From: Desulfohalovibrio reitneri
GTDB taxonomy: Bacteria; Desulfobacterota; Desulfovibrionia; Desulfovibrionales; Desulfovibrionaceae
Length of the DNA stretch: 64,000 nt
Direction of reading: 5' to 3'
NCBI RefSeq assembly: GCF_000711295.1
Contig: NZ_JOMJ01000003.1
Span: 1,005,001-1,069,000 of the forward strand
The position numbers and the translations under genes were made by a program. The first letter of the stretch is position 1. Each line of letters begins with the position of its first letter. Below are positions 10,817-18,340 of this stretch, piece after piece. Under the pieces are notes generated by a model. It made no database searches. It was not told where the DNA came from and worked only from the letters and a program-made list of their open reading frames with translations.

Positions 10817-11401
10817 TCACAGGTAGTCGGTCAGGCCAGCCTCGCTGAAAGCCTCCCGCAGCTTGCTCAGCCGGTCGTAGAGGGTGGTTCTGGGAATGCC
10901 CATCTCCCGGGCGATTTCGGCCATGGTGCTGTCGTGCAGGCGCACGCACAGATCCCGGAGCTCTTCCGGCAACGAGGCGATGGCCCGGTCGAGGTCCATG
11001 CGGATCTCATGGGCGAGGCGCTCCCTTGTCTCGCGGGTGCCGCTTCCCAGAGAGCCTTCGCTATCCAGGAAGTCGATCCGCTCGGTGGTGTCGCCTTCGC
11101 CGTTGTCGAGGGGTTCGTTGAGTGATGTTTGGCAGAGCCGCCAGTCCCGGCATTGGGCGAACCGGGCCTCCAGAATGGTGGAGATGTGACGTTCGACGAT
11201 CCGGGCCATGAAGGTGGTCTTCTTGGCCTTGGCGGGATTGAAATGCCGCATCCGCTGCAGCAGATCGATCATCAGTTCCTGTTCGAGGTCGGGTCTGTCG
11301 TCCTCGGTGAATCCGGCTTTGCCTACGAGTTGACGTGCTTTGTGCCGAATGAGGTCGGCGGCATACTTGTCGATGCCATCGTAAGAATTCTGTGAAACCA
11401 T
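10817..11401 (-). CDS. Sigma-70-like RNA polymerase sigma factor of the element
   Basis: The 194-aa protein has a region-2-like N-terminal half (DRPDLEQELMIDLLQRMRHFNPAKAKKTTFMARIVERHIST). The clear region-4 HTH near the end reads LPEELRDLCVRLHDSTMAEIAREMGIPRTTLYDRLSKLREAF. It lacks regions 1 and 3, like ECF or phage-encoded sigma factors. Position near the front of the replication operon suggests that it directs transcription of the element's own genes. The GAGGAGG ribosome-binding site six bases before the ATG is fully paired with an upstream CCTCCTC, so translation should be limited. Confidence 0.85.
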   Translation of the reverse strand: MVSQNSYDGIDKYAADLIRHKARQLVGKAGFTEDDRPDLEQELMIDLLQRMRHFNPAKAKKTTFMARIVERHISTILEARFAQCRDWRLCQTSLNEPLDNGEGDTTERIDFLDSEGSLGSGTRETRERLAHEIRMDLDRAIASLPEELRDLCVRLHDSTMAEIAREMGIPRTTLYDRLSKLREAFSEAGLTDYL

Positions 11402-11406
11402 CGGGG

Positions 11407-11425
11407 CCTCCTCGGAGCGAGGAGG
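11407..11425 (-). promoter_or_regulatory. Hairpin hiding the sigma-factor ribosome-binding site
   Basis: The minus strand reads CCTCCTC (11425-11419), a five-base loop, then GAGGAGG (11413-11407), a perfect seven-pair stem. GAGGAGG is also the ribosome-binding site of the sigma-factor gene starting at 11401. Opening of the stem would be needed for initiation. Confidence 0.6.
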
Positions 11426-11596
11426 AGGTCCGCGTGGGTGTCGGCACGGGCCAGATCACAGGACAAAGCTGTCGCGTGGGCGAAGGGGTCGCAGGTACGC
11501 CGCCAATTGCCGTATTCGGCTCGGCGACACCCACAACAGCCTCCGCCATGCGTCCAGCTTGTTGTCCAGTGTCTATGGGTTCAGGTCGTTACGTGT

Positions 11597-11923
11597 TCAG
11601 GCTGCCCGTTCCTCGATGCGCATCAGGAACGGGAGACCGTGCTTGATTTCGAGCAGGCAGACTTTTCCGCTGCCCATCTGCGCAAGGTGCTCCAGCAGCG
11701 CCACGACCTCTTGCTTGAGGATGAAGTCATCCTGGTCGCGCTCGGGCCGGGGACCGCTCTGTCCGCCCAGCTTGATCTCACGCTCGATGACCGTGTCAGG
11801 GGTGAGTTCCGGCTCGCCGTCGCGGACCGGAATGTTGGTGATGCGGCCGAAGTTGATGTCCTGCATCAACTCGATGAGTCGCCGCTTCGGTGGGGTGAGG
11901 TGTGCTTTGTTGATTTGTGCCAC
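11597..11923 (-). CDS. Hypothetical protein, 108 aa
   Basis: No family recognised. The GTG start at 11923 follows AAGGAGA at suitable spacing. The sequence begins VAQINKAHLTPPKRRLIELMQDINFGRI and has a charged middle segment rich in Arg, Asp and Glu. A strand-helix C-terminal part follows (FILKQEVVALLEHLAQMGSGKVCLLEIKHGLPFLMRIEERAA). The gene stands just after the terminator of the QueC-like operon and 195 bases before the sigma-factor gene on the same strand. It is therefore probably the first gene of the replication operon. Function unknown. Confidence 0.7.
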   Translation of the reverse strand: MAQINKAHLTPPKRRLIELMQDINFGRITNIPVRDGEPELTPDTVIEREIKLGGQSGPRPERDQDDFILKQEVVALLEHLAQMGSGKVCLLEIKHGLPFLMRIEERAA

Positions 11924-11980: not shown

Positions 11981-12031
11981 AATAAAAAACGCCGGATCGC
12001 GCCTTCATTGGGGAAGGCGCTACATCCGGCG
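11981..12031 (-). terminator. Terminator of the QueC-like operon
   Basis: On the minus strand a long hairpin (CGCCGGAT with ATCCGGCG, inner GCGCCTTC with GAAGGCGC) at 12031-11990 is followed by GTTTTTTATT. It sits 66 bases after the stop of the QueC-like gene and separates that operon from the replication genes. Confidence 0.85.
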
Positions 12032-12096
12032 TCGCAATGGCTACATTTGGCGTAGCGGAAATTTTTTTTAGTTTTTTCTTCCTGGGTGGTCCCGGG

Positions 12097-14199
12097 TCAT
12101 TCGTTGACTATCGGGCGGACCTCCCAAACGATCTCCTCTTCGGTCCGGTAGACCGGTGCGTTGCCGCACTTGATGGACTCCTTCAAGTGGGCAGCCAGCG
12201 GCTTATCGTACTTCTCCAGATACTTAATGGCCCGGTTCACGGCACTCCGGAAGGCGTCACGAATGTTCTTGCGTTTGTCGTTGGATTTCCGGAGTTTGCC
12301 ACCCAGACCAACCGCCTCGTTGATTGCGGCGGTGATCTGAGTCATTTCGTCCTCAAGCCGCTGGATTTCGGCATCGTTGTTTTCTGCCCGGGCTTCTTCA
12401 ATCTCTCGGAAAAGCTCGTGAGCCGTCTCCCGGTATTGCTCGACGGCCTTGCGGTCGGCAACGAAGCCGGTATCACCCAACGGAACCCCCTGGGTGACCT
12501 GAAAACCTTCGTCGGTTTCATTGGAGTTCAGGACCGCGTTGCAGCTATCGATGGCAAACCCGCAGACGATCTCGTAGACCGAGGTTTCCTTGTTGGGCCT
12601 TGCCAGGAGGAAGTTGATGTACTCGGCTCCTTTGTCGACACCCGTCACGAGCACCTCGGCATTGCCGTTAAAGCGTGCGGCCCAGACACCCCCGCGCTTC
12701 CTGAAATAGTTGTCCGGCTGCTTCTGATCGACCGGAATGGCGGGGACGGAGATTACCGATCCCGATTCATAGACCGTCCTGAGTAGGCAGTCTCCCGGCA
12801 AGGTGCGTTGGCGGATGGCGGTGATGTTGCGGCCAACCATGGTGTCCATTGCATCGCAGACTTCCTTGGCATGCTGCTTGTAGAGGTCATAAACCTTTTG
12901 TGCCACTTTGCCGGAGTTCCCATTAAGGTAGCGGAAGACCCGACTGACCTCGCTGAATCGGGCGATAAACTGGGTGATGTCGTCCTGCTCGCGTACCTGA
13001 TTGGCACGCTCCAGGTACGCGGCCGTCATGATCTTGTCTTCATCCTTGCTTCTGCTTTGGGTGAAGATGTCGGCCTTATAGGCTTCAACCGGGTCGTACT
13101 GATCGGCCTTTGCCGCAAGCATGGCAAAACGCCTGTCGATGCACTGCGAACACGTTCCGCAGTGGGTATGATGATTGGTCATCTCCCAGGTGTGTGTGCA
13201 GGTAGTCGATGCCGCGATCATATCCTGGCATCCTGCCTTGGTGATCACCTGGATGACATCGGCCTTGGTTTTCCAGATGTAGGGATTCTCAATCGTGAAC
13301 GGCTCGCCAGCCACCAAGCTGATGATTTCCTGAAACCCTCGAATCACCCTTGGATGGGTGGTGCGAGTTGCCCGTCCGCCGACTACCTGGGCGCAGACCG
13401 GCAAATTTAGACTGATGACGCCGTTTTCGTAGAACCGGACGCTCTTCAGGTTCAGCATCCGCGCAATGGTCGCTCCGATAGATACATAGAGAAAGGAGCG
13501 GCTCCGTTGGGTGTACTCTTTGTTGAGTTTCTTGTTCTTGTTGACGCGAACGCCGATGTGGAGGGGATCGTTTTCGCCAGCCTTGTCGGCAATCATCTTT
13601 TCCAGCCGACGGTGGCGCTTGTTGAGCTTCTGGGTCGGCTTGTGGGTTACCAGAACCACCCGTCGTTTCTCGTTCAGTACCTCGTCAATGGTTCCCGCCA
13701 GCGAGTCCAGGCCGCCCGAAAACATCACCACCTGTTCCGGATAACCGTGAAGACGTCCGTCATCGTTGAAGTCCAGGTAGCCTTGAAAAGCATGTGCCTC
13801 TTTCAGTTTGGTGAACTCGAAGTGGTAGTTGTCGTCGGACAGGAAGCCAAGCGTCGAGCACAGCGCCTGCAGAATCTCTTGCCCGTTCCAGAAATCCGGG
13901 GTCCTTACCGGGATGATGAAGTGCAGATCTCTGCGCCAGCCGTGCCCGAAGGAATCGACGTCATCGGCTCCCCGTGGAATGGCCTGGTCGGCGCAGTAAA
14001 CATAGGTGGCGATCTCAAGCAGATCCTGGAAGACATCCGGCACATTTCTGACAATTTTTGTATGAATGTCTTCGATGCGCAGGGTGATCTTGTCCGGCCC
14101 GTCTTTGCCCCAAAGGCGCAGACGCAGATCCCGGCCAGGGGTTTCCTTAATCCCATCGGTCGGTGCGTTTCCGCATATGATGTAACGCTTATCTTGCAT
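12097..14199 (-). CDS. QueC-like PP-loop protein, 700 aa (QatC/Cap9-type)
   Basis: The protein has a complete QueC-like core. The PP-loop SGGLDS lies at residues 161-166 and four cysteines, C334, C347, C350 and C353 (CGTCSQC), form the QueC zinc site. QueC makes 7-cyano-7-deazaguanine, but normal QueC is about 230 aa and works with QueD, QueE and QueF, none of which is here. About 150 extra residues precede the core and 340 follow, including a charged helical segment near 590-650. Long QueC-like proteins occur in phage defence (QatC, and Cap9 of type IV CBASS), where attachment of a deazaguanine to a partner protein has been described. Its start overlaps the 262-aa gene by 11 bases. Confidence 0.8.
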   Translation of the reverse strand: MQDKRYIICGNAPTDGIKETPGRDLRLRLWGKDGPDKITLRIEDIHTKIVRNVPDVFQDLLEIATYVYCADQAIPRGADDVDSFGHGWRRDLHFIIPVRTPDFWNGQEILQALCSTLGFLSDDNYHFEFTKLKEAHAFQGYLDFNDDGRLHGYPEQVVMFSGGLDSLAGTIDEVLNEKRRVVLVTHKPTQKLNKRHRRLEKMIADKAGENDPLHIGVRVNKNKKLNKEYTQRSRSFLYVSIGATIARMLNLKSVRFYENGVISLNLPVCAQVVGGRATRTTHPRVIRGFQEIISLVAGEPFTIENPYIWKTKADVIQVITKAGCQDMIAASTTCTHTWEMTNHHTHCGTCSQCIDRRFAMLAAKADQYDPVEAYKADIFTQSRSKDEDKIMTAAYLERANQVREQDDITQFIARFSEVSRVFRYLNGNSGKVAQKVYDLYKQHAKEVCDAMDTMVGRNITAIRQRTLPGDCLLRTVYESGSVISVPAIPVDQKQPDNYFRKRGGVWAARFNGNAEVLVTGVDKGAEYINFLLARPNKETSVYEIVCGFAIDSCNAVLNSNETDEGFQVTQGVPLGDTGFVADRKAVEQYRETAHELFREIEEARAENNDAEIQRLEDEMTQITAAINEAVGLGGKLRKSNDKRKNIRDAFRSAVNRAIKYLEKYDKPLAAHLKESIKCGNAPVYRTEEEIVWEVRPIVNE

Positions 14200-14977
14200 C
14201 GGCTCGCGCTCCTTCTTTTAGCTCGTCCTTCATCTTTTTCAGCGCATAGGAGGCGAAGCCATTGGAAGATTCCCTGGAGATGTCACCACCTTCTTCGTAT
14301 CTGTGCTTTGAAAACCAGTCTGCTGAAAACTGTTCGACGATCAGGGAATCCTCTTTGCAGTGCATGTTCAGGGCCTTCTCGAATTGTCCCATTTCATTCA
14401 TGGTGGCAAAGCGCTGGCCCTCGCCAAGATGGGTGGCCAGCGTTTTTGACAGGAAATAGTTCATGCTCTCGTTGGTCAGCTTGGCGAAGAAAGTCCGCGA
14501 CAGTTCTCCGAACTCCCGCTTTTTTCCGAGCGCAGCCAGTGCGGCCCGAACATCATCTGGTCCGGGGGCGAACAGAGACGGCAGCTTTGGTGAGATGTGC
14601 TCCACCAGGGCTCCAACCAATGCCCGCTGAGACATTTCACCGAGGTCGGATCGGCCACCGTTGGACTCCAATTTATTATCCAAGGCCTCGGAGATTGCGG
14701 CGGCAAGATCGGGAAGGGATGTATCCTGCGGCAGGTTGACACCGAGGGATTGGAGATGCTCGCCGAAGTTCTCTTTTTTTGCGGCAATGGCGAGCTGGGT
14801 CATCAACCAGACCGCCTCGGTGAACCCCTCATCGTTGAGCACGGAGGTGAAGGCTTTGTCGGCCGCCCGGATTGTGGCATTTGCGATTTGGGACACGTCG
14901 GCACCGGCCGTGATCAGGCCGACCACCTCTTTCCATGCCCTCGACCTTGGAAGGCTTCCAAGTCTGACGTGCCCCAT
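14189..14977 (-). CDS. Met-Gly N-terminus protein, 262 aa; candidate partner of the QueC-like protein
   Basis: The protein begins MGHVRLGSLPRSRAWKEVVGLI, so after Met removal it exposes an N-terminal glycine. It is mostly helical, with a Gly/Ala-rich first helix (ITAGADVSQIANATIRAADKAF) and a conserved-looking middle (GFTEAVWLMTQLAIAAKKENF). The C-terminal part is charged. I recall this MGHVRLG-type opening in uncharacterised proteins next to QueC-like genes, but I cannot verify it here. It is coupled to the QueC-like gene by an 11-base overlap. In QatB and type IV CBASS proteins the glycine is the reported site of modification, so a substrate role here is a reasoned guess. Confidence 0.72.
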   Translation of the reverse strand: MGHVRLGSLPRSRAWKEVVGLITAGADVSQIANATIRAADKAFTSVLNDEGFTEAVWLMTQLAIAAKKENFGEHLQSLGVNLPQDTSLPDLAAAISEALDNKLESNGGRSDLGEMSQRALVGALVEHISPKLPSLFAPGPDDVRAALAALGKKREFGELSRTFFAKLTNESMNYFLSKTLATHLGEGQRFATMNEMGQFEKALNMHCKEDSLIVEQFSADWFSKHRYEEGGDISRESSNGFASYALKKMKDELKEGARADAR

Positions 14978-15010: not shown

Positions 15011-15244
15011 TTATTCGGGCCTCCTGATGACGACGATGCTCCGGGCCTTACGAGCTTCTTTCTTCAGATAGCCTTTCCGTACCAGTTGAGCGATCTGCTC
15101 GTGGGCGCTCGCGTGGCTGATACCAAGGACTTCCGACAATTCTTTCACCGTTGGCGGTAACCCCTTTTCATCGATGATTTGGCAAATGACCCTCAGCGTG
15201 TTGGCTTGTGGGTCGGTTATTTCCGATACCTTTTTCTTTCCCAT
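15011..15244 (-). CDS. LexA-type winged-helix DNA-binding protein, 77 aa
   Basis: The whole protein is a LexA N-terminal-type domain: DPQANTLRVICQIIDEKGLPPTVKELSEVLGISHASAHEQIAQLVRKGYLKKEARKARSIVV. It matches the helix-turn-helix and wing of LexA but lacks the S24 self-cleavage domain, so it cannot respond to RecA in the LexA way. It is the first gene of the cargo operon, and a perfect palindrome covers its promoter. It most likely represses the operon. The signal that relieves repression is unknown. Confidence 0.87.
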   Translation of the reverse strand: MGKKKVSEITDPQANTLRVICQIIDEKGLPPTVKELSEVLGISHASAHEQIAQLVRKGYLKKEARKARSIVVIRRPE

Positions 15245-15300: not shown

Positions 15301-15329
15301 AATATACGACCTGATGAACATCAGGTCAA
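15301..15329 (-). promoter_or_regulatory. Promoter with overlapping palindromic operator of the cargo operon
   Basis: On the minus strand a TTGACC -35 (15329-15324) and a TATATT -10 (15306-15301) are spaced by exactly 17 bases. The palindrome GACCTGATG-AA-CATCAGGTC (15308-15327) starts inside the -35 box and fills the spacer. A repressor bound there would exclude RNA polymerase. The obvious candidate is the LexA-type protein encoded by the first gene. Confidence 0.8.
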
Positions 15330-15540: not shown

Positions 15541-15783
15541 ATGTTGGATGTACAGAAAATGAATGATGTGCCGGGGACGGAAGATCTCGGCGAAAACGGC
15601 AATCCCAGCCGCCTGTCGGGTGAGGCGAGGCTCCAGTCAGCCGCCTCCATTCTGGCTACGGCGGTCCTGCGCCGAAAGGCCAAAAAAGCATGTGTAGGCA
15701 GTGAGTTAGAGTTTTTCGAAGATTCTTCCCCTGTGCTCGGAGAAGGACTTGATTCATTGCCGGAACAGAGCATTCATTCATGA
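15541..15783 (+). CDS. Small hypothetical protein upstream of DUF2924, 80 aa
   Basis: The ATG at 15541 has GGAGGTG seven bases before it. The central segment ARLQSAASILATAVLRRKAKKA is a basic amphipathic helix. I believe similar LA-x-x-LR-rich small proteins precede recombinase operons in related elements, but the rest is low-complexity and acidic. It runs in the same direction as the DUF2924 and recombinase genes and ends 34 bases before them. Function unknown; it could be a false call. Confidence 0.5.
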   Translation: MLDVQKMNDVPGTEDLGENGNPSRLSGEARLQSAASILATAVLRRKAKKACVGSELEFFEDSSPVLGEGLDSLPEQSIHS

Positions 15784-15817
15784 CAACTCGTCCGGAAACC
15801 AAAATAAGGAGTTGAAA

Positions 15818-16342
15818 ATGATTGAGTTACAGAACGCCGCCACGGGCGGCAAGAATCAGGACCGAACCCGAAACTCGGTCCTTCGGCAGATGGCCCTGCT
15901 GCAATCCATGTCCCTGGAGCAGCTCCGGGAAAAATGGCTCGACCTCTACGGCGAAGAGCCTCCCCAGTACAAGAAGCAATTCCTCATCAAACGGCTGGCC
16001 TATCGCATCCAGGAGCTTTTCTACGGCGGGCTGTCCGAGCAGGCCAAGGTCCATCTCCAGCAGGCCGCCAAGGAGGACCCGGTAGCCACTGTCAATCGAC
16101 GCATCCCAGAAGAGCGGAAATCGAACGAGGCGATCCTGCCTGGAACCAGACTGGTGCGGGTCTGGAACGACCGGCGTTATGAGGTGATCGTCCTTGCCGA
16201 TGGCTACGAGTTTGAAGGCCGCACCTTCCGGTCGCTCAGCGCGGTGGCCAGGGAGATCACCGGGACCAGGTGGAACGGCAAGGTCTTTTTCGGGTTGAAG
16301 AAGGTTTACGGCAGAAAAGCCGAGGGAGGTTCGGATGCTTGA
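15818..16342 (+). CDS. DUF2924 family protein
   Basis: The 174-aa protein has the DUF2924 pattern. An N-terminal helix reads LEQLREKWLDLYGEEPPQYKKQFLIKRLAYRIQELFYGGLS. The middle segment LPGTRLVRVWNDRRYEVIVLADGYEFEGRTFRSLSAVAREITG is followed by TRWNGKVFFGL. Genes of this family sit directly before large serine recombinases in many bacterial elements; the C-terminal part resembles DNA-binding domains of such systems. The start at 15818 has AAGGAG upstream; 23 earlier in-frame codons lack a ribosome-binding site. It overlaps the recombinase start by eight bases. Confidence 0.88.
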   Translation: MIELQNAATGGKNQDRTRNSVLRQMALLQSMSLEQLREKWLDLYGEEPPQYKKQFLIKRLAYRIQELFYGGLSEQAKVHLQQAAKEDPVATVNRRIPEERKSNEAILPGTRLVRVWNDRRYEVIVLADGYEFEGRTFRSLSAVAREITGTRWNGKVFFGLKKVYGRKAEGGSDA

Positions 16343-17921
16343 TAACAGCAATGTCGCGCCGGGCAAGAACAAGACCCTGCGCTGTGCCATCTACACCCGC
16401 AAGAGCCACGAGGAAGGGCTCGAACAGGAGTTCAACTCGTTGGATGCACAACGGGAATCTGCGGAACACTATATCGAAGCCCAGAGGATGCGTGGCTGGA
16501 CGGCTCTGCCGGATCGCTACGACGATGGTGGATTCTCGGGTGGGAACATGGAGCGCCCGGGGCTGCGCCGACTGCTGGCGGACATCGACGCCGGGAAGAT
16601 CGATGTGATCGTCGTCTACAAGGTCGACCGGCTGTCCCGCTCGCTGCTGGACTTCATGAAGATGATCGACCTCTTCAACGAGAAGGGTGTCAGCTTCGTC
16701 TCGGTCACCCAGCACTTCAGCACCACCGACCCCACCGGCCGGATGTTTCTCGGCATCCTGATCACCTTCGCTCAGTACGAGCGGGAGGTCATAGCCGAGC
16801 GTATCCGGGACAAGGTGGCGGCAGCCAAGCGCCGGGGGAAATACTGCGGCGGCGTACCCATCCTCGGATACGACGTCGACAGGGACAACAAGAAGCTGCT
16901 GGTCAACCCCGATGAAGCCATGACGGTGCAGTACATCTTCCGCCGGTTCATCCAGATCGGCTCGGCCAAGAAGCTGGGCCAGGAATTGAACGAACAGGGT
17001 TACCGCACCAAGGCCTGGACCACCAAGAAAGGCAAAGTGCGCGAGGGCTCCGAATGGAACACCGCCCACATCTACCGGCTGCTCAATAACCGGATCTATA
17101 TCGGCGAGATCGCCCACAAGGACCGCAGCTACCCCGGAGAGCACGAAGGGATCATCGACCGGGCGACCTGGGACAAGGTGCAGGCCATCCTGGAGGACAA
17201 CAAACCGGTCAAGGTTTCCATGGCCAGAACCAAAATGGTCGCCCCGTTGAAAGGCGTCATCCGTTGCGGCCACTGCGGATGCGCGATGGGACCGACCTAC
17301 GCCCGCAAGAACGGCCGCCACTACACCTATTACATCTGCCAGAAAGACAGCAAGCGGACCGTGAGCCGGTGCCCGCTCAAACGGATTCCCGCCGGGGACA
17401 TCGAGCAGGCGGTAATCGAGCAGTTGAGCGCGGTGTTCCGGACACCGACGCTGGTGGCCAAAACCTACTTCGCGGCCCGGGACATCGAGCAGGCGGAGCG
17501 GGAGCGGCTGTTCAAGCAGAAAGCCCAACTCGAGATGGAGCTGTCGCAGGCACGGGAGCAGGCACTCGAACTGATGAAACCCGGCAGCGATCAGCCGGGC
17601 AAGACCGAGATGCTGACGGCCGTCAATCGCCAGGCGGTCGAGCTCTCGAAACAACTGACCCATGTGAGCGAGCGCTGCAAAGCTTACCAGGGGAACAGCA
17701 TCACGGAGCAGGATGTGTCGGAGGCCTTCCAGAATGTCGAGGGCTTCTGGGATGACCTTTTCCCGGTGGAGCGAAACCGGCTCATCCGCCTCCTGGTGGA
17801 TAAGGTGGAGGTCCGTGAGACCGGAATCGACATGGAGCTGCGAACCAACGGGCTGACAACGCTCATCGCCGAGCTGGCTGGTCTGGCATGCGAAGTCACT
17901 GAACGGAGGGCAAGCCGATGA
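16335..17921 (+). CDS. Large serine recombinase (integrase/excisionase of the element)
   Basis: The 528-aa protein has the resolvase catalytic domain with nucleophile Ser24 (YTRKS), the SLDAQRE motif, and VYKVDRLSRSLLDF and ERIRDKVAAAKRRG. A Recombinase domain follows (about 180-290), then a zinc ribbon (CGHCGCAMGP near 309 plus two later cysteines) and a coiled coil near 390-440. Such enzymes integrate DNA between attP and attB by a double-strand break with a two-base crossover. It is the best candidate for movement of this element. It overlaps both neighbours. Confidence 0.95.
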   Translation: MLDNSNVAPGKNKTLRCAIYTRKSHEEGLEQEFNSLDAQRESAEHYIEAQRMRGWTALPDRYDDGGFSGGNMERPGLRRLLADIDAGKIDVIVVYKVDRLSRSLLDFMKMIDLFNEKGVSFVSVTQHFSTTDPTGRMFLGILITFAQYEREVIAERIRDKVAAAKRRGKYCGGVPILGYDVDRDNKKLLVNPDEAMTVQYIFRRFIQIGSAKKLGQELNEQGYRTKAWTTKKGKVREGSEWNTAHIYRLLNNRIYIGEIAHKDRSYPGEHEGIIDRATWDKVQAILEDNKPVKVSMARTKMVAPLKGVIRCGHCGCAMGPTYARKNGRHYTYYICQKDSKRTVSRCPLKRIPAGDIEQAVIEQLSAVFRTPTLVAKTYFAARDIEQAERERLFKQKAQLEMELSQAREQALELMKPGSDQPGKTEMLTAVNRQAVELSKQLTHVSERCKAYQGNSITEQDVSEAFQNVEGFWDDLFPVERNRLIRLLVDKVEVRETGIDMELRTNGLTTLIAELAGLACEVTERRASR

Positions 17922-18340
17922 AAATGAAGCCGACCATTACCGTAGCTGACAACGGCAACCTGCAGATTCACATCCCGATGCTGATCCGGCGCATGCGTGG
18001 CCGCAAGACGGTCATCGCTCCCCAGGCCCTGGATGGAGAAATCACCGGAGCACAGGAACCGGTGCAGTCCGCCATCCTCCAGGCACTGGGAAGGGCCTTT
18101 TCCTGGGCCGACATCCTCGAATCCGGCCAGATCAAGTCCATCAGCGAGCTTGCCCGTACCCTTGACGTCGATGGCTCGTATGTGGCCCGCATCCTCAAGC
18201 TGACGACCCTGGCCCCCGACATCATCGAAGCCCTGATCAATGGCGAGGAACCCAACGGGCTCTCGCTGGCCAAGCTGACCCAGACCTTTCCCGAGGACTG
18301 GACCGAGCAGCGCCGCCAGTTCGGCTTCGCCACCGACTGA
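17918..18340 (+). CDS. KorB/ParB-type HTH protein linked to the recombinase
   Basis: The 140-aa protein has an N-terminal beta segment (ITVADNGNLQIHIPMLIRRMRGRKTVIAP). A KorB-like helix-turn-helix follows (SISELARTLDVDGSYVARILKLTTLAPDIIEALINGEEPNGLSLAKL). Proteins of this type commonly follow DUF2924 and a serine recombinase, and may act as a directionality or regulatory factor. The start overlaps the recombinase stop (ATGA). It is the last gene of the integration operon. Confidence 0.85.
   Translation: MKMKPTITVADNGNLQIHIPMLIRRMRGRKTVIAPQALDGEITGAQEPVQSAILQALGRAFSWADILESGQIKSISELARTLDVDGSYVARILKLTTLAPDIIEALINGEEPNGLSLAKLTQTFPEDWTEQRRQFGFATD

What the first reader, a model, noticed from the sequence alone, without database searches (positions are those of the whole stretch)
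15301..15329. Perfect palindrome locked into the cargo promoter
A nine-base inverted repeat with a two-base centre (15308-15327) lies between a TTGACC -35 and a TATATT -10 with exact 17-base spacing. The first gene encodes a LexA-type DNA-binding domain without the self-cleavage domain. This is a textbook autorepressor layout, and it implies that release depends on a signal other than RecA-driven cleavage.
Basis: partly seen in the sequence, partly recalled or inferred. Interest (0 to 1): 0.5.

Follow-up and report, generated by a model that had tools for sequence, protein, structure and literature searches.

The report
Self-silencing switch for prophage defence cargo
A short palindrome inside a prophage promoter is very probably the docking site of a small DNA-binding protein that switches off its own operon, and the same switch is found in front of three different gene cargos, two of them recognisable virus-defence systems, in prophages of many bacteria.

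Summary
GACCTGATG-AA-CATCAGGTC (15308-15327) lies inside a minus-strand promoter, TTGACC-17-TATATT (15329-15301). The motif TTGACCTGAT-N4-ATCAGG precedes the regulator in 46 of 47 distinct protein-selected loci with a regulator at least 50% identical, and in 0 of 18 below that. A protein-blind pattern search found 83 stretches; 80 have this regulator downstream. So the palindrome is almost certainly the regulator's operator; repression is inferred from its position, not shown. Cargo and regulator form change together, once at the very end of the DNA-binding domain with 97.9% identity upstream. The absence of a RecA-cleavable domain is shown; what, if anything, releases the repressor is unknown. 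New variant of a known kind.

The parts
15324..15329 (-). -35 element TTGACC; its last four bases are the start of the palindrome
   Evidence: TTGA and the last C invariant, the first C in 45 of 46, in the aligned upstream regions
15308..15327 (.). operator palindrome GACCTGATG-AA-CATCAGGTC (core CCTGAT-N4-ATCAGG)
   Evidence: conserved in 46 of 47 related loci and found by protein-blind pattern search
15301..15306 (-). -10 element TATATT, 17 nt from the -35
15011..15244 (-). 77-aa LexA-type winged-helix protein without S24 protease domain; first gene, predicted autorepressor
   Evidence: PF01726 49 bits; no S24 match listed; conserved as stand-alone 77-aa ORF in distant loci
14189..14977 (-). 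262-aa QatB-like protein, N-terminus MGHVRLG
   Evidence: predicted fold matches QatB 9y01_A, Z 15.6, rmsd 3.4, 209 residues, next unrelated entry Z 6.6; MGH invariant in 37 of 37 aligned
12097..14199 (-). 700-aa QatC-like QueC-family protein with an extra C-terminal region (about 405-700)
   Evidence: PADLOC QatC E 8.8e-53; solved QatC 9vlk E 1e-30; SGGLDS, TRTTHP and C334, C347, C350, C353 invariant in 32 of 32 aligned
11984..12033 (-). intrinsic terminator closing the unit, folding energy -31.7 kcal/mol, then TTTTTT
   Evidence: kept in the 6 close relatives scanned (L180, L174, L102, L135, L128, L112); of the more distant QatBC loci only L166 had one, 27 had none by the criterion used, 6 had no DNA left
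15541..17921 (+). divergent neighbours: 80-aa ORF, DUF2924 protein, serine recombinase (integrase); right flank of the cargo slot
10817..11923 (-). left flank of the slot: 108-aa ORF and sigma-factor-like protein
   Evidence: 96.6-96.7% DNA identity to relatives with another cargo ends at 11909

Best explanation
The palindrome is the operator of the 77-aa LexA-type protein encoded by the first gene. Two copies of the protein bind the two half-sites (inferred). The site fills the gap between -35 and -10 and overlaps the -35, so a bound dimer and RNA polymerase exclude each other (inferred). The protein thereby represses its own gene and the QatB-QatC genes behind it, in the window a closed transcription unit that ends at a terminator. 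The unit is cargo in a slot of a temperate phage, between the integrase and the replication genes. Since the protease domain is missing (shown), DNA damage cannot release it by RecA-driven self-cleavage. Most likely the loop has no dedicated sensor: it holds QatBC at a low level in the lysogen and lets it rise for a short time when the element enters a cell that has no repressor yet, or when the repressor is diluted (inferred, about 45%). Other cargos in the same slot keep the full LexA protein and should be SOS-inducible.
For: Operator and regulator travel together in both directions. Protein-selected loci: 46 of 47 with the motif when the regulator is at least 50% identical, 0 of 18 below (no locus lies between 40 and 51%); shuffled upstreams reach 2 mismatches in 1 of 9,400. 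Pattern-selected loci: 37 viral and 46 genome stretches, 80 of 83 with the regulator downstream; by simple arithmetic about one chance match is expected in the genome collection. A QatBC copy without the regulator (G015, L027) has no such motif: best match in 18 kb has 5 mismatches of 16. In the protein-selected set both hexamers stay at 16 or 17 nt. The full palindrome is unique in the genome and a terminator follows QatC in the window and its 6 close relatives. The 77-aa form is an old, stable gene, not a fresh fragment: 35 of the 38 different short sequences on the tree form one starred clade.
Against: No binding or expression data. An isolated LexA DNA-binding domain lacks the C-terminal dimer interface and may bind weakly (recalled). 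L101 has a 72% identical regulator but no motif in its 200-nt upstream. Three pattern hits have no such regulator (L116, L160, L175); in L162 and L173 another ORF lies between operator and regulator. Seven further core sites with 2 mismatches lie in the window, above the shuffled mean. Most distant QatBC loci show no terminator behind QatC. Foldseek alone did not rank QatB as significant (E 0.35).
Confidence: 0.8

Rival explanations
1. The small protein is an activator, or an activator and repressor in turn, like the controller proteins of restriction systems.
For: Small helix-turn-helix protein, first gene before a defence-like cargo, palindrome at its promoter.
Against: The site lies between near-consensus hexamers at 16-17 nt spacing instead of upstream of the -35, a place that blocks polymerase.
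Confidence: 0.08
2. The 77-aa protein is the phage's main lysogeny repressor and the cargo is merely the head of the lytic operon.
For: The replication genes lie on the same strand behind the cargo; full-length relatives in the slot resemble phage repressors (phrog_4); weak core sites with 2 mismatches occur elsewhere in the prophage part of the window.
Against: A -31.7 kcal/mol terminator follows QatC; no second full operator in the genome within 2 mismatches.
Confidence: 0.1
3. Release is linked to RecA after all, through a full-length cleavable relative that shares the operator and competes or pairs with the short form.
For: Both forms share the operator core and coexist in G371 and G390 and in the Desulfosarcina alkanivorans chromosome (L148, L164).
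Against: In the window's genome the only other LexA_DNA_bind match is partial (26.1 bits, positions 27-60 of the model, not studied).
Confidence: 0.15
4. The palindrome is an RNA hairpin or terminator, or the site of an unrelated host regulator.
For: The scan lists it also as terminator-like.
Against: It lies upstream of the start expected from the -10; hexamers and half-sites are kept together and follow this regulator family through many bacterial groups.
Confidence: 0.03

Closest known systems
LexA (SOS repressor)
   Same: DNA-binding domain by Pfam and by a partial NCBIfam lexA match, palindromic site in a promoter; full-length relatives in the same slot carry S24 with Ser and Lys kept in 22 of 22 aligned rows, 20 distinct loci
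   Different: 77-aa form has no S24 domain, one full operator, no SOS genes behind it. The operator fits CCT-N10-AGG, which I recall for Magnetococcus LexA; one search did not return that report
qatABCD defence, QatB-QatC core (PMC13279940; abstract, Results and Discussion read)
   Same: QatB fold and QatC with the SGGxDS and TxT motifs; the paper shows that QatB and QatC alone can defend against some phages
   Different: no QatA or QatD among the 9 proteins scanned; QatC has about 235 more residues than the solved ones; QatB tail is short and starts MGHVRLG, not MGTS
RptR (PMC12255303; abstract, outline, passages read)
   Same: small repressor, first gene of a defence island, palindromic sites overlapping its own promoter
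   Different: binds three 6-bp TAGCTA sites, another fold, restriction cargo
CapK-CapS (PMC13373217, abstract and outline read), BrxR family (PMC9122601, search listing only), CapH-CapP (recalled)
   Same: dedicated regulator gene ahead of immune operons
   Different: these have a kinase, a WYL domain or a protease partner; none was recognised in the 77-aa unit

Membership tests
LexA | LexA-type winged-helix DNA-binding domain | tested here: met
   PF01726 49 bits over cut-off 23.7; LexA chains head the list of solved matches
LexA | S24 self-cleavage domain with Ala-Gly site, Ser and Lys | tested here: not met
   77-aa protein ends before it; no S24 match. Present in the full-length relatives of the slot; the Ala-Gly pair itself is altered in L148 and L149
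LexA | controls several DNA-damage genes | tested here: inconclusive
   full operator unique in the genome within 2 mismatches, but weak core sites exist in the window
LexA | RecA-stimulated inactivation | not testable with these tools
   needs experiment
QatBC core of qatABCD | QatC: QueC fold with SGGxDS, TxT and zinc cysteines | tested here: met
   NCBIfam NF041925 207.6 bits is below its cut-off of 280
QatBC core of qatABCD | QatB helical fold next to QatC | tested here: met
   Z 15.6 to 9y01_A; no sequence match to QatB in the PDB, Foldseek E 0.35
QatBC core of qatABCD | QatB N-terminal MGTS and a disordered tail of 30-90 residues | tested here: not met
   MGH in 37 of 37; first long helix at residue 13, only 1-8 under pLDDT 50 as a segment. 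Glycine 2 itself is kept
qatABCD | QatA NTPase and QatD nuclease in the operon | tested here: not met
   unit is closed by a terminator; none among the 9 proteins scanned
Autoregulated defence repressors (RptR-like in function) | first gene of the unit, operator in its own promoter, conserved with it | tested here: met
   second gene in L162 and L173
Autoregulated defence repressors (RptR-like in function) | represses that promoter | not testable with these tools
   needs reporter or gel shift

The most novel reading that the evidence does not exclude
A family of temperate phages keeps a standard control head (integrase, operator, LexA DNA-binding domain) and plugs interchangeable defence cargos in behind it, and the cargo decides whether the repressor has a RecA-cleavable half. 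QatBC and type III-D CRISPR cargos come with a deaf repressor, so that they stay shut when DNA damage induces the prophage itself; the unknown cargo comes with the cleavable LexA and is meant to fire on damage. Deaf and cleavable repressors that share one operator in one cell would then also gate each other's cargos.
Probability: 0.35. Interest if true: 0.72.

Novelty: new variant of a known kind. Interest (0 to 1): 0.6.

Why it matters
Little is known of how phage-borne defence genes are kept quiet and when they are released. Here one operator and one DNA-binding domain serve three cargos, with the damage-sensing half present or absent according to the cargo. That turns 'should this defence respond to DNA damage?' into a comparison of natural pairs: L182 and L183 are 97.9% identical over 2 kb up to the end of the DNA-binding domain and then part. 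The operator string is also a practical probe for new cargos; the work that followed it met an unrecognised cargo and a type III-D CRISPR operon in a prophage-like slot.

Tried and rejected
Idea that the QatC enzyme modifies the regulator's own N-terminal glycine to release it: rejected, 27 of 36 different short regulators start MS and only 7 start MG. Idea of read-through from regulator into QatB (same frame in the window): the distance is not a multiple of three in other loci, for example L103. Profile comparison of p379 (second gene of the unknown cargo) with QatC gave nothing, although in L168 the DNA after a p379-like stretch encodes a match to QatC residues 486-699 (31%). QatB by sequence against the PDB: no match, and Foldseek alone was not significant; the claim rests on VIA-align. 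QatB-like protein in annotated phages: none; plasmids: one at 23% in a Leptospira record, not followed. The QatC model is mediocre (pLDDT 65). The sign test for joint change of regulator form and cargo cannot reach significance with 2-3 independent pairs. Literature: no paper on a LexA-type regulator of QatBC; the library lacks most subscription papers. No CRISPR array: no direct repeats in L186:1-900 or L187, no tandem rows in L186; C47:31901-36518 was not searched and the contig ends at the other side. In one search the printed label 'x60' is wrong, 30 sequences were run. The 'ungapped identity' line is meaningless (the two strands are offset by indels) and is not used; the 97.9% is BLAST's.

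Full report
Observation. A palindrome of this kind alone is not rare in 64 kb, but one enclosed by a good promoter is (1 in the window, 0 in 30 Markov sequences), and the full palindrome is unique in the assembly within 2 mismatches. The shorter core has 7 further places with 2 mismatches in the window, above the shuffled mean (8 in all against 2.68); whether they matter is open.

What it belongs to. On the minus strand the promoter is followed by a 77-aa LexA-type DNA-binding domain (15244-15011), a 262-aa protein (14977-14189) and a 700-aa protein (14199-12097). The last is a QatC relative; SGGLDS, TRTTHP and four cysteines are invariant in 32 of 32 aligned sequences. The 262-aa protein has no significant match in Pfam, PADLOC, NCBIfam, PHROGs or the PDB sequences, but its predicted structure (pLDDT 82) matches QatB at Z 15.6, while the best unrelated entry has Z 6.6. 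QatA and QatD are not among the 9 proteins scanned. A terminator of -31.7 kcal/mol follows QatC at 12033-11984; 6 of 6 close relatives have it, most distant QatBC loci show none by the same criterion. The unit sits in a prophage: integrase to the right, recombination and primase genes to the left, and portal, terminase and head genes beyond the window.

Conservation of the operator. The first set are loci held whose regulator was found by tblastn at E up to 1e-6; copies of the window (L001, L005, L022) and duplicate contigs were dropped. Of these, 46 of 47 distinct loci with a regulator at least 50% identical have TTGACCTGAT-N4-ATCAGG with at most one mismatch (40 exact); L101 has not. Of 18 loci with regulators under 50%, none has it; there the gene starts are rough and L055 and L058 have less than 200 nt upstream. 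The threshold follows a natural gap (none between 40 and 51%). Shuffled upstreams reach two mismatches in 1 of 9,400. In 893 pairs, picked for flank identity under 60%, the promoter is 84% identical against 29% and 31% in the flanks. The reverse test used DNA alone: TTGACCTGAT-N4-ATCAGG-N2/3-TATA gave 37 viral and 46 genome stretches. In 80 of 83 the regulator lies downstream, in 5 of them cut by the end of the DNA held; L116, L160 and L175 have none; in L162 and L173 it is the second gene. Many of the viral stretches are the same contigs as in the first set; the genome stretches were not chosen by protein and run from beta-, gamma- and deltaproteobacterial records to single Planctomycetota, Chloroflexota and Zixibacteria bins. 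A QatBC copy without the regulator (L027) lacks the motif too.

Regulator form and cargo. Of the 83 pattern loci, 62 have a complete short regulator: 53 are followed by QatB and QatC relatives, 8 by QatB with no QatC match seen, 1 (L162) by neither. Thirteen have the full LexA with S24: 11 are followed by an unknown protein (c17, about 388 aa), 2 are not matched. Of these two, L146 has a gene 77% identical to the gene of L149, which itself matches c17 only at 23%; the DNA held for L148 ends 716 nt behind the promoter. The second gene, p379, follows c17 in 6 of the 11; L149 has enough DNA but no match; the other four end too early. Five loci are cut, three have no regulator. On a tree of the DNA-binding domain the short forms are not one clade (AU p 0.0097; full forms p 0.048). 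Form and cargo agree in 49 of 49 scored rows with 2-3 independent changes; L148 and L162 were not scored, ten entries of the cargo table were set by hand (L146 as c17), and the locus of the next paragraph is not on the tree. With 72 columns the tree is weak.

A third cargo and a clean junction. G390:C47 has the operator with one mismatch and a regulator of up to 131 aa that has the LexA domain but no S24 match. Behind it come a Card1/Csx1-type CARF nuclease, Cas10d, Cas7, Cas5 of type III-D, a protein matching Cas7 models in two stretches, Csx19, a large Cas7/Csm3 and a second CARF protein. About 2,022 aligned bases upstream are 97.9% identical to G371's copy (L182), from the integrase gene through the operator to the last codons of the DNA-binding domain; the alignment ends on the other side only because L183 ends. 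At the domain's end the two part: L182 goes on into the S24 domain and the c17 cargo, L183 into a short tail and the CRISPR operon. The window's 77-aa protein ends at the same point of the domain. G390, a metagenome bin, holds all three cargo types, each with this operator; its QatBC copy is at a contig end and only part of QatB is seen. Between the window and L024/L025 the DNA is 96.6-96.7% identical up to 11909 and 91.5-92.1% identical from 15029/15062 on. So here, too, the right-hand break lies near the 3' end of the regulator's DNA-binding domain, although promoter and domain have diverged in between (62-63% protein identity).

Mechanism. Shown: the operator-regulator association, the position in the promoter, the missing protease domain, the terminator in the window, the exchange of cargo. 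Inferred: binding as a dimer, repression, low standing expression of QatBC, release without a sensor. PMC13279940 (abstract, Results and Discussion read) shows that QatB and QatC alone can defend against some phages and that QatB's N-terminal glycine is essential. Here glycine 2 is invariant, but MGTS and the long tail are not met, so 'works like QatBC' is better founded than 'is a qatABCD member'. That the unknown c17 cargo is a defence system is a guess from its company.

Novelty. Autorepressors or dedicated regulators of defence operons are known (RptR, CapS, BrxR); LexA is known. A LexA operator and DNA-binding domain serving as a common head for swapped defence cargos, with the damage-sensing half tied to the cargo, was not found in the searches made.

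Noticed in passing
L186:803-11405 (G390:C47): Type III-D CRISPR effector operon with Card1/Csx1-type and CARF-RelE/Csm6-type accessory proteins in the cargo slot of a prophage-like element; no array seen in the stretches searched, contig ends nearby.
   Followed up: partly
L024:7308-9531 (relatives of both genes in L147, L152, L176, L137, L182, L184, L185): Two-gene cargo (388 and 379 aa) with no Pfam or PHROGs match and no convincing PADLOC match behind a full LexA-S24 regulator on the same operator; candidate unknown defence or SOS-induced system.
   Followed up: partly
window:12097-12744 and L168: C-terminal region of the QatC-like protein (486-699) matches sequence that follows a p379-like stretch in L168 (31% over 223 aa), so the two cargos may share a domain.
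   Followed up: partly
L162 and L173, between operator and regulator: An extra ORF of roughly 150 residues lies first in the unit, before the short regulator; not identified.
   Followed up: no
L033:4658-9249 (G000:C3, left of the window): Genes that read like a LysR regulator, MetE and a GlyA-like protein lie between phage head genes; names from reading the translation, no search run.
   Followed up: no
window:18760-19116: tmRNA gene beside the integrase end of the prophage; likely attachment site at its 3' end, not tested.
   Followed up: no
L027 (G015): QatBC copy in the same phage context without regulator and without the operator; how it is controlled is open.
   Followed up: partly
window:11612-11657 and 17974-17989, among others: Seven core-like sites with 2 mismatches, more than shuffles give; possibly weak secondary sites or chance.
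   Followed up: no
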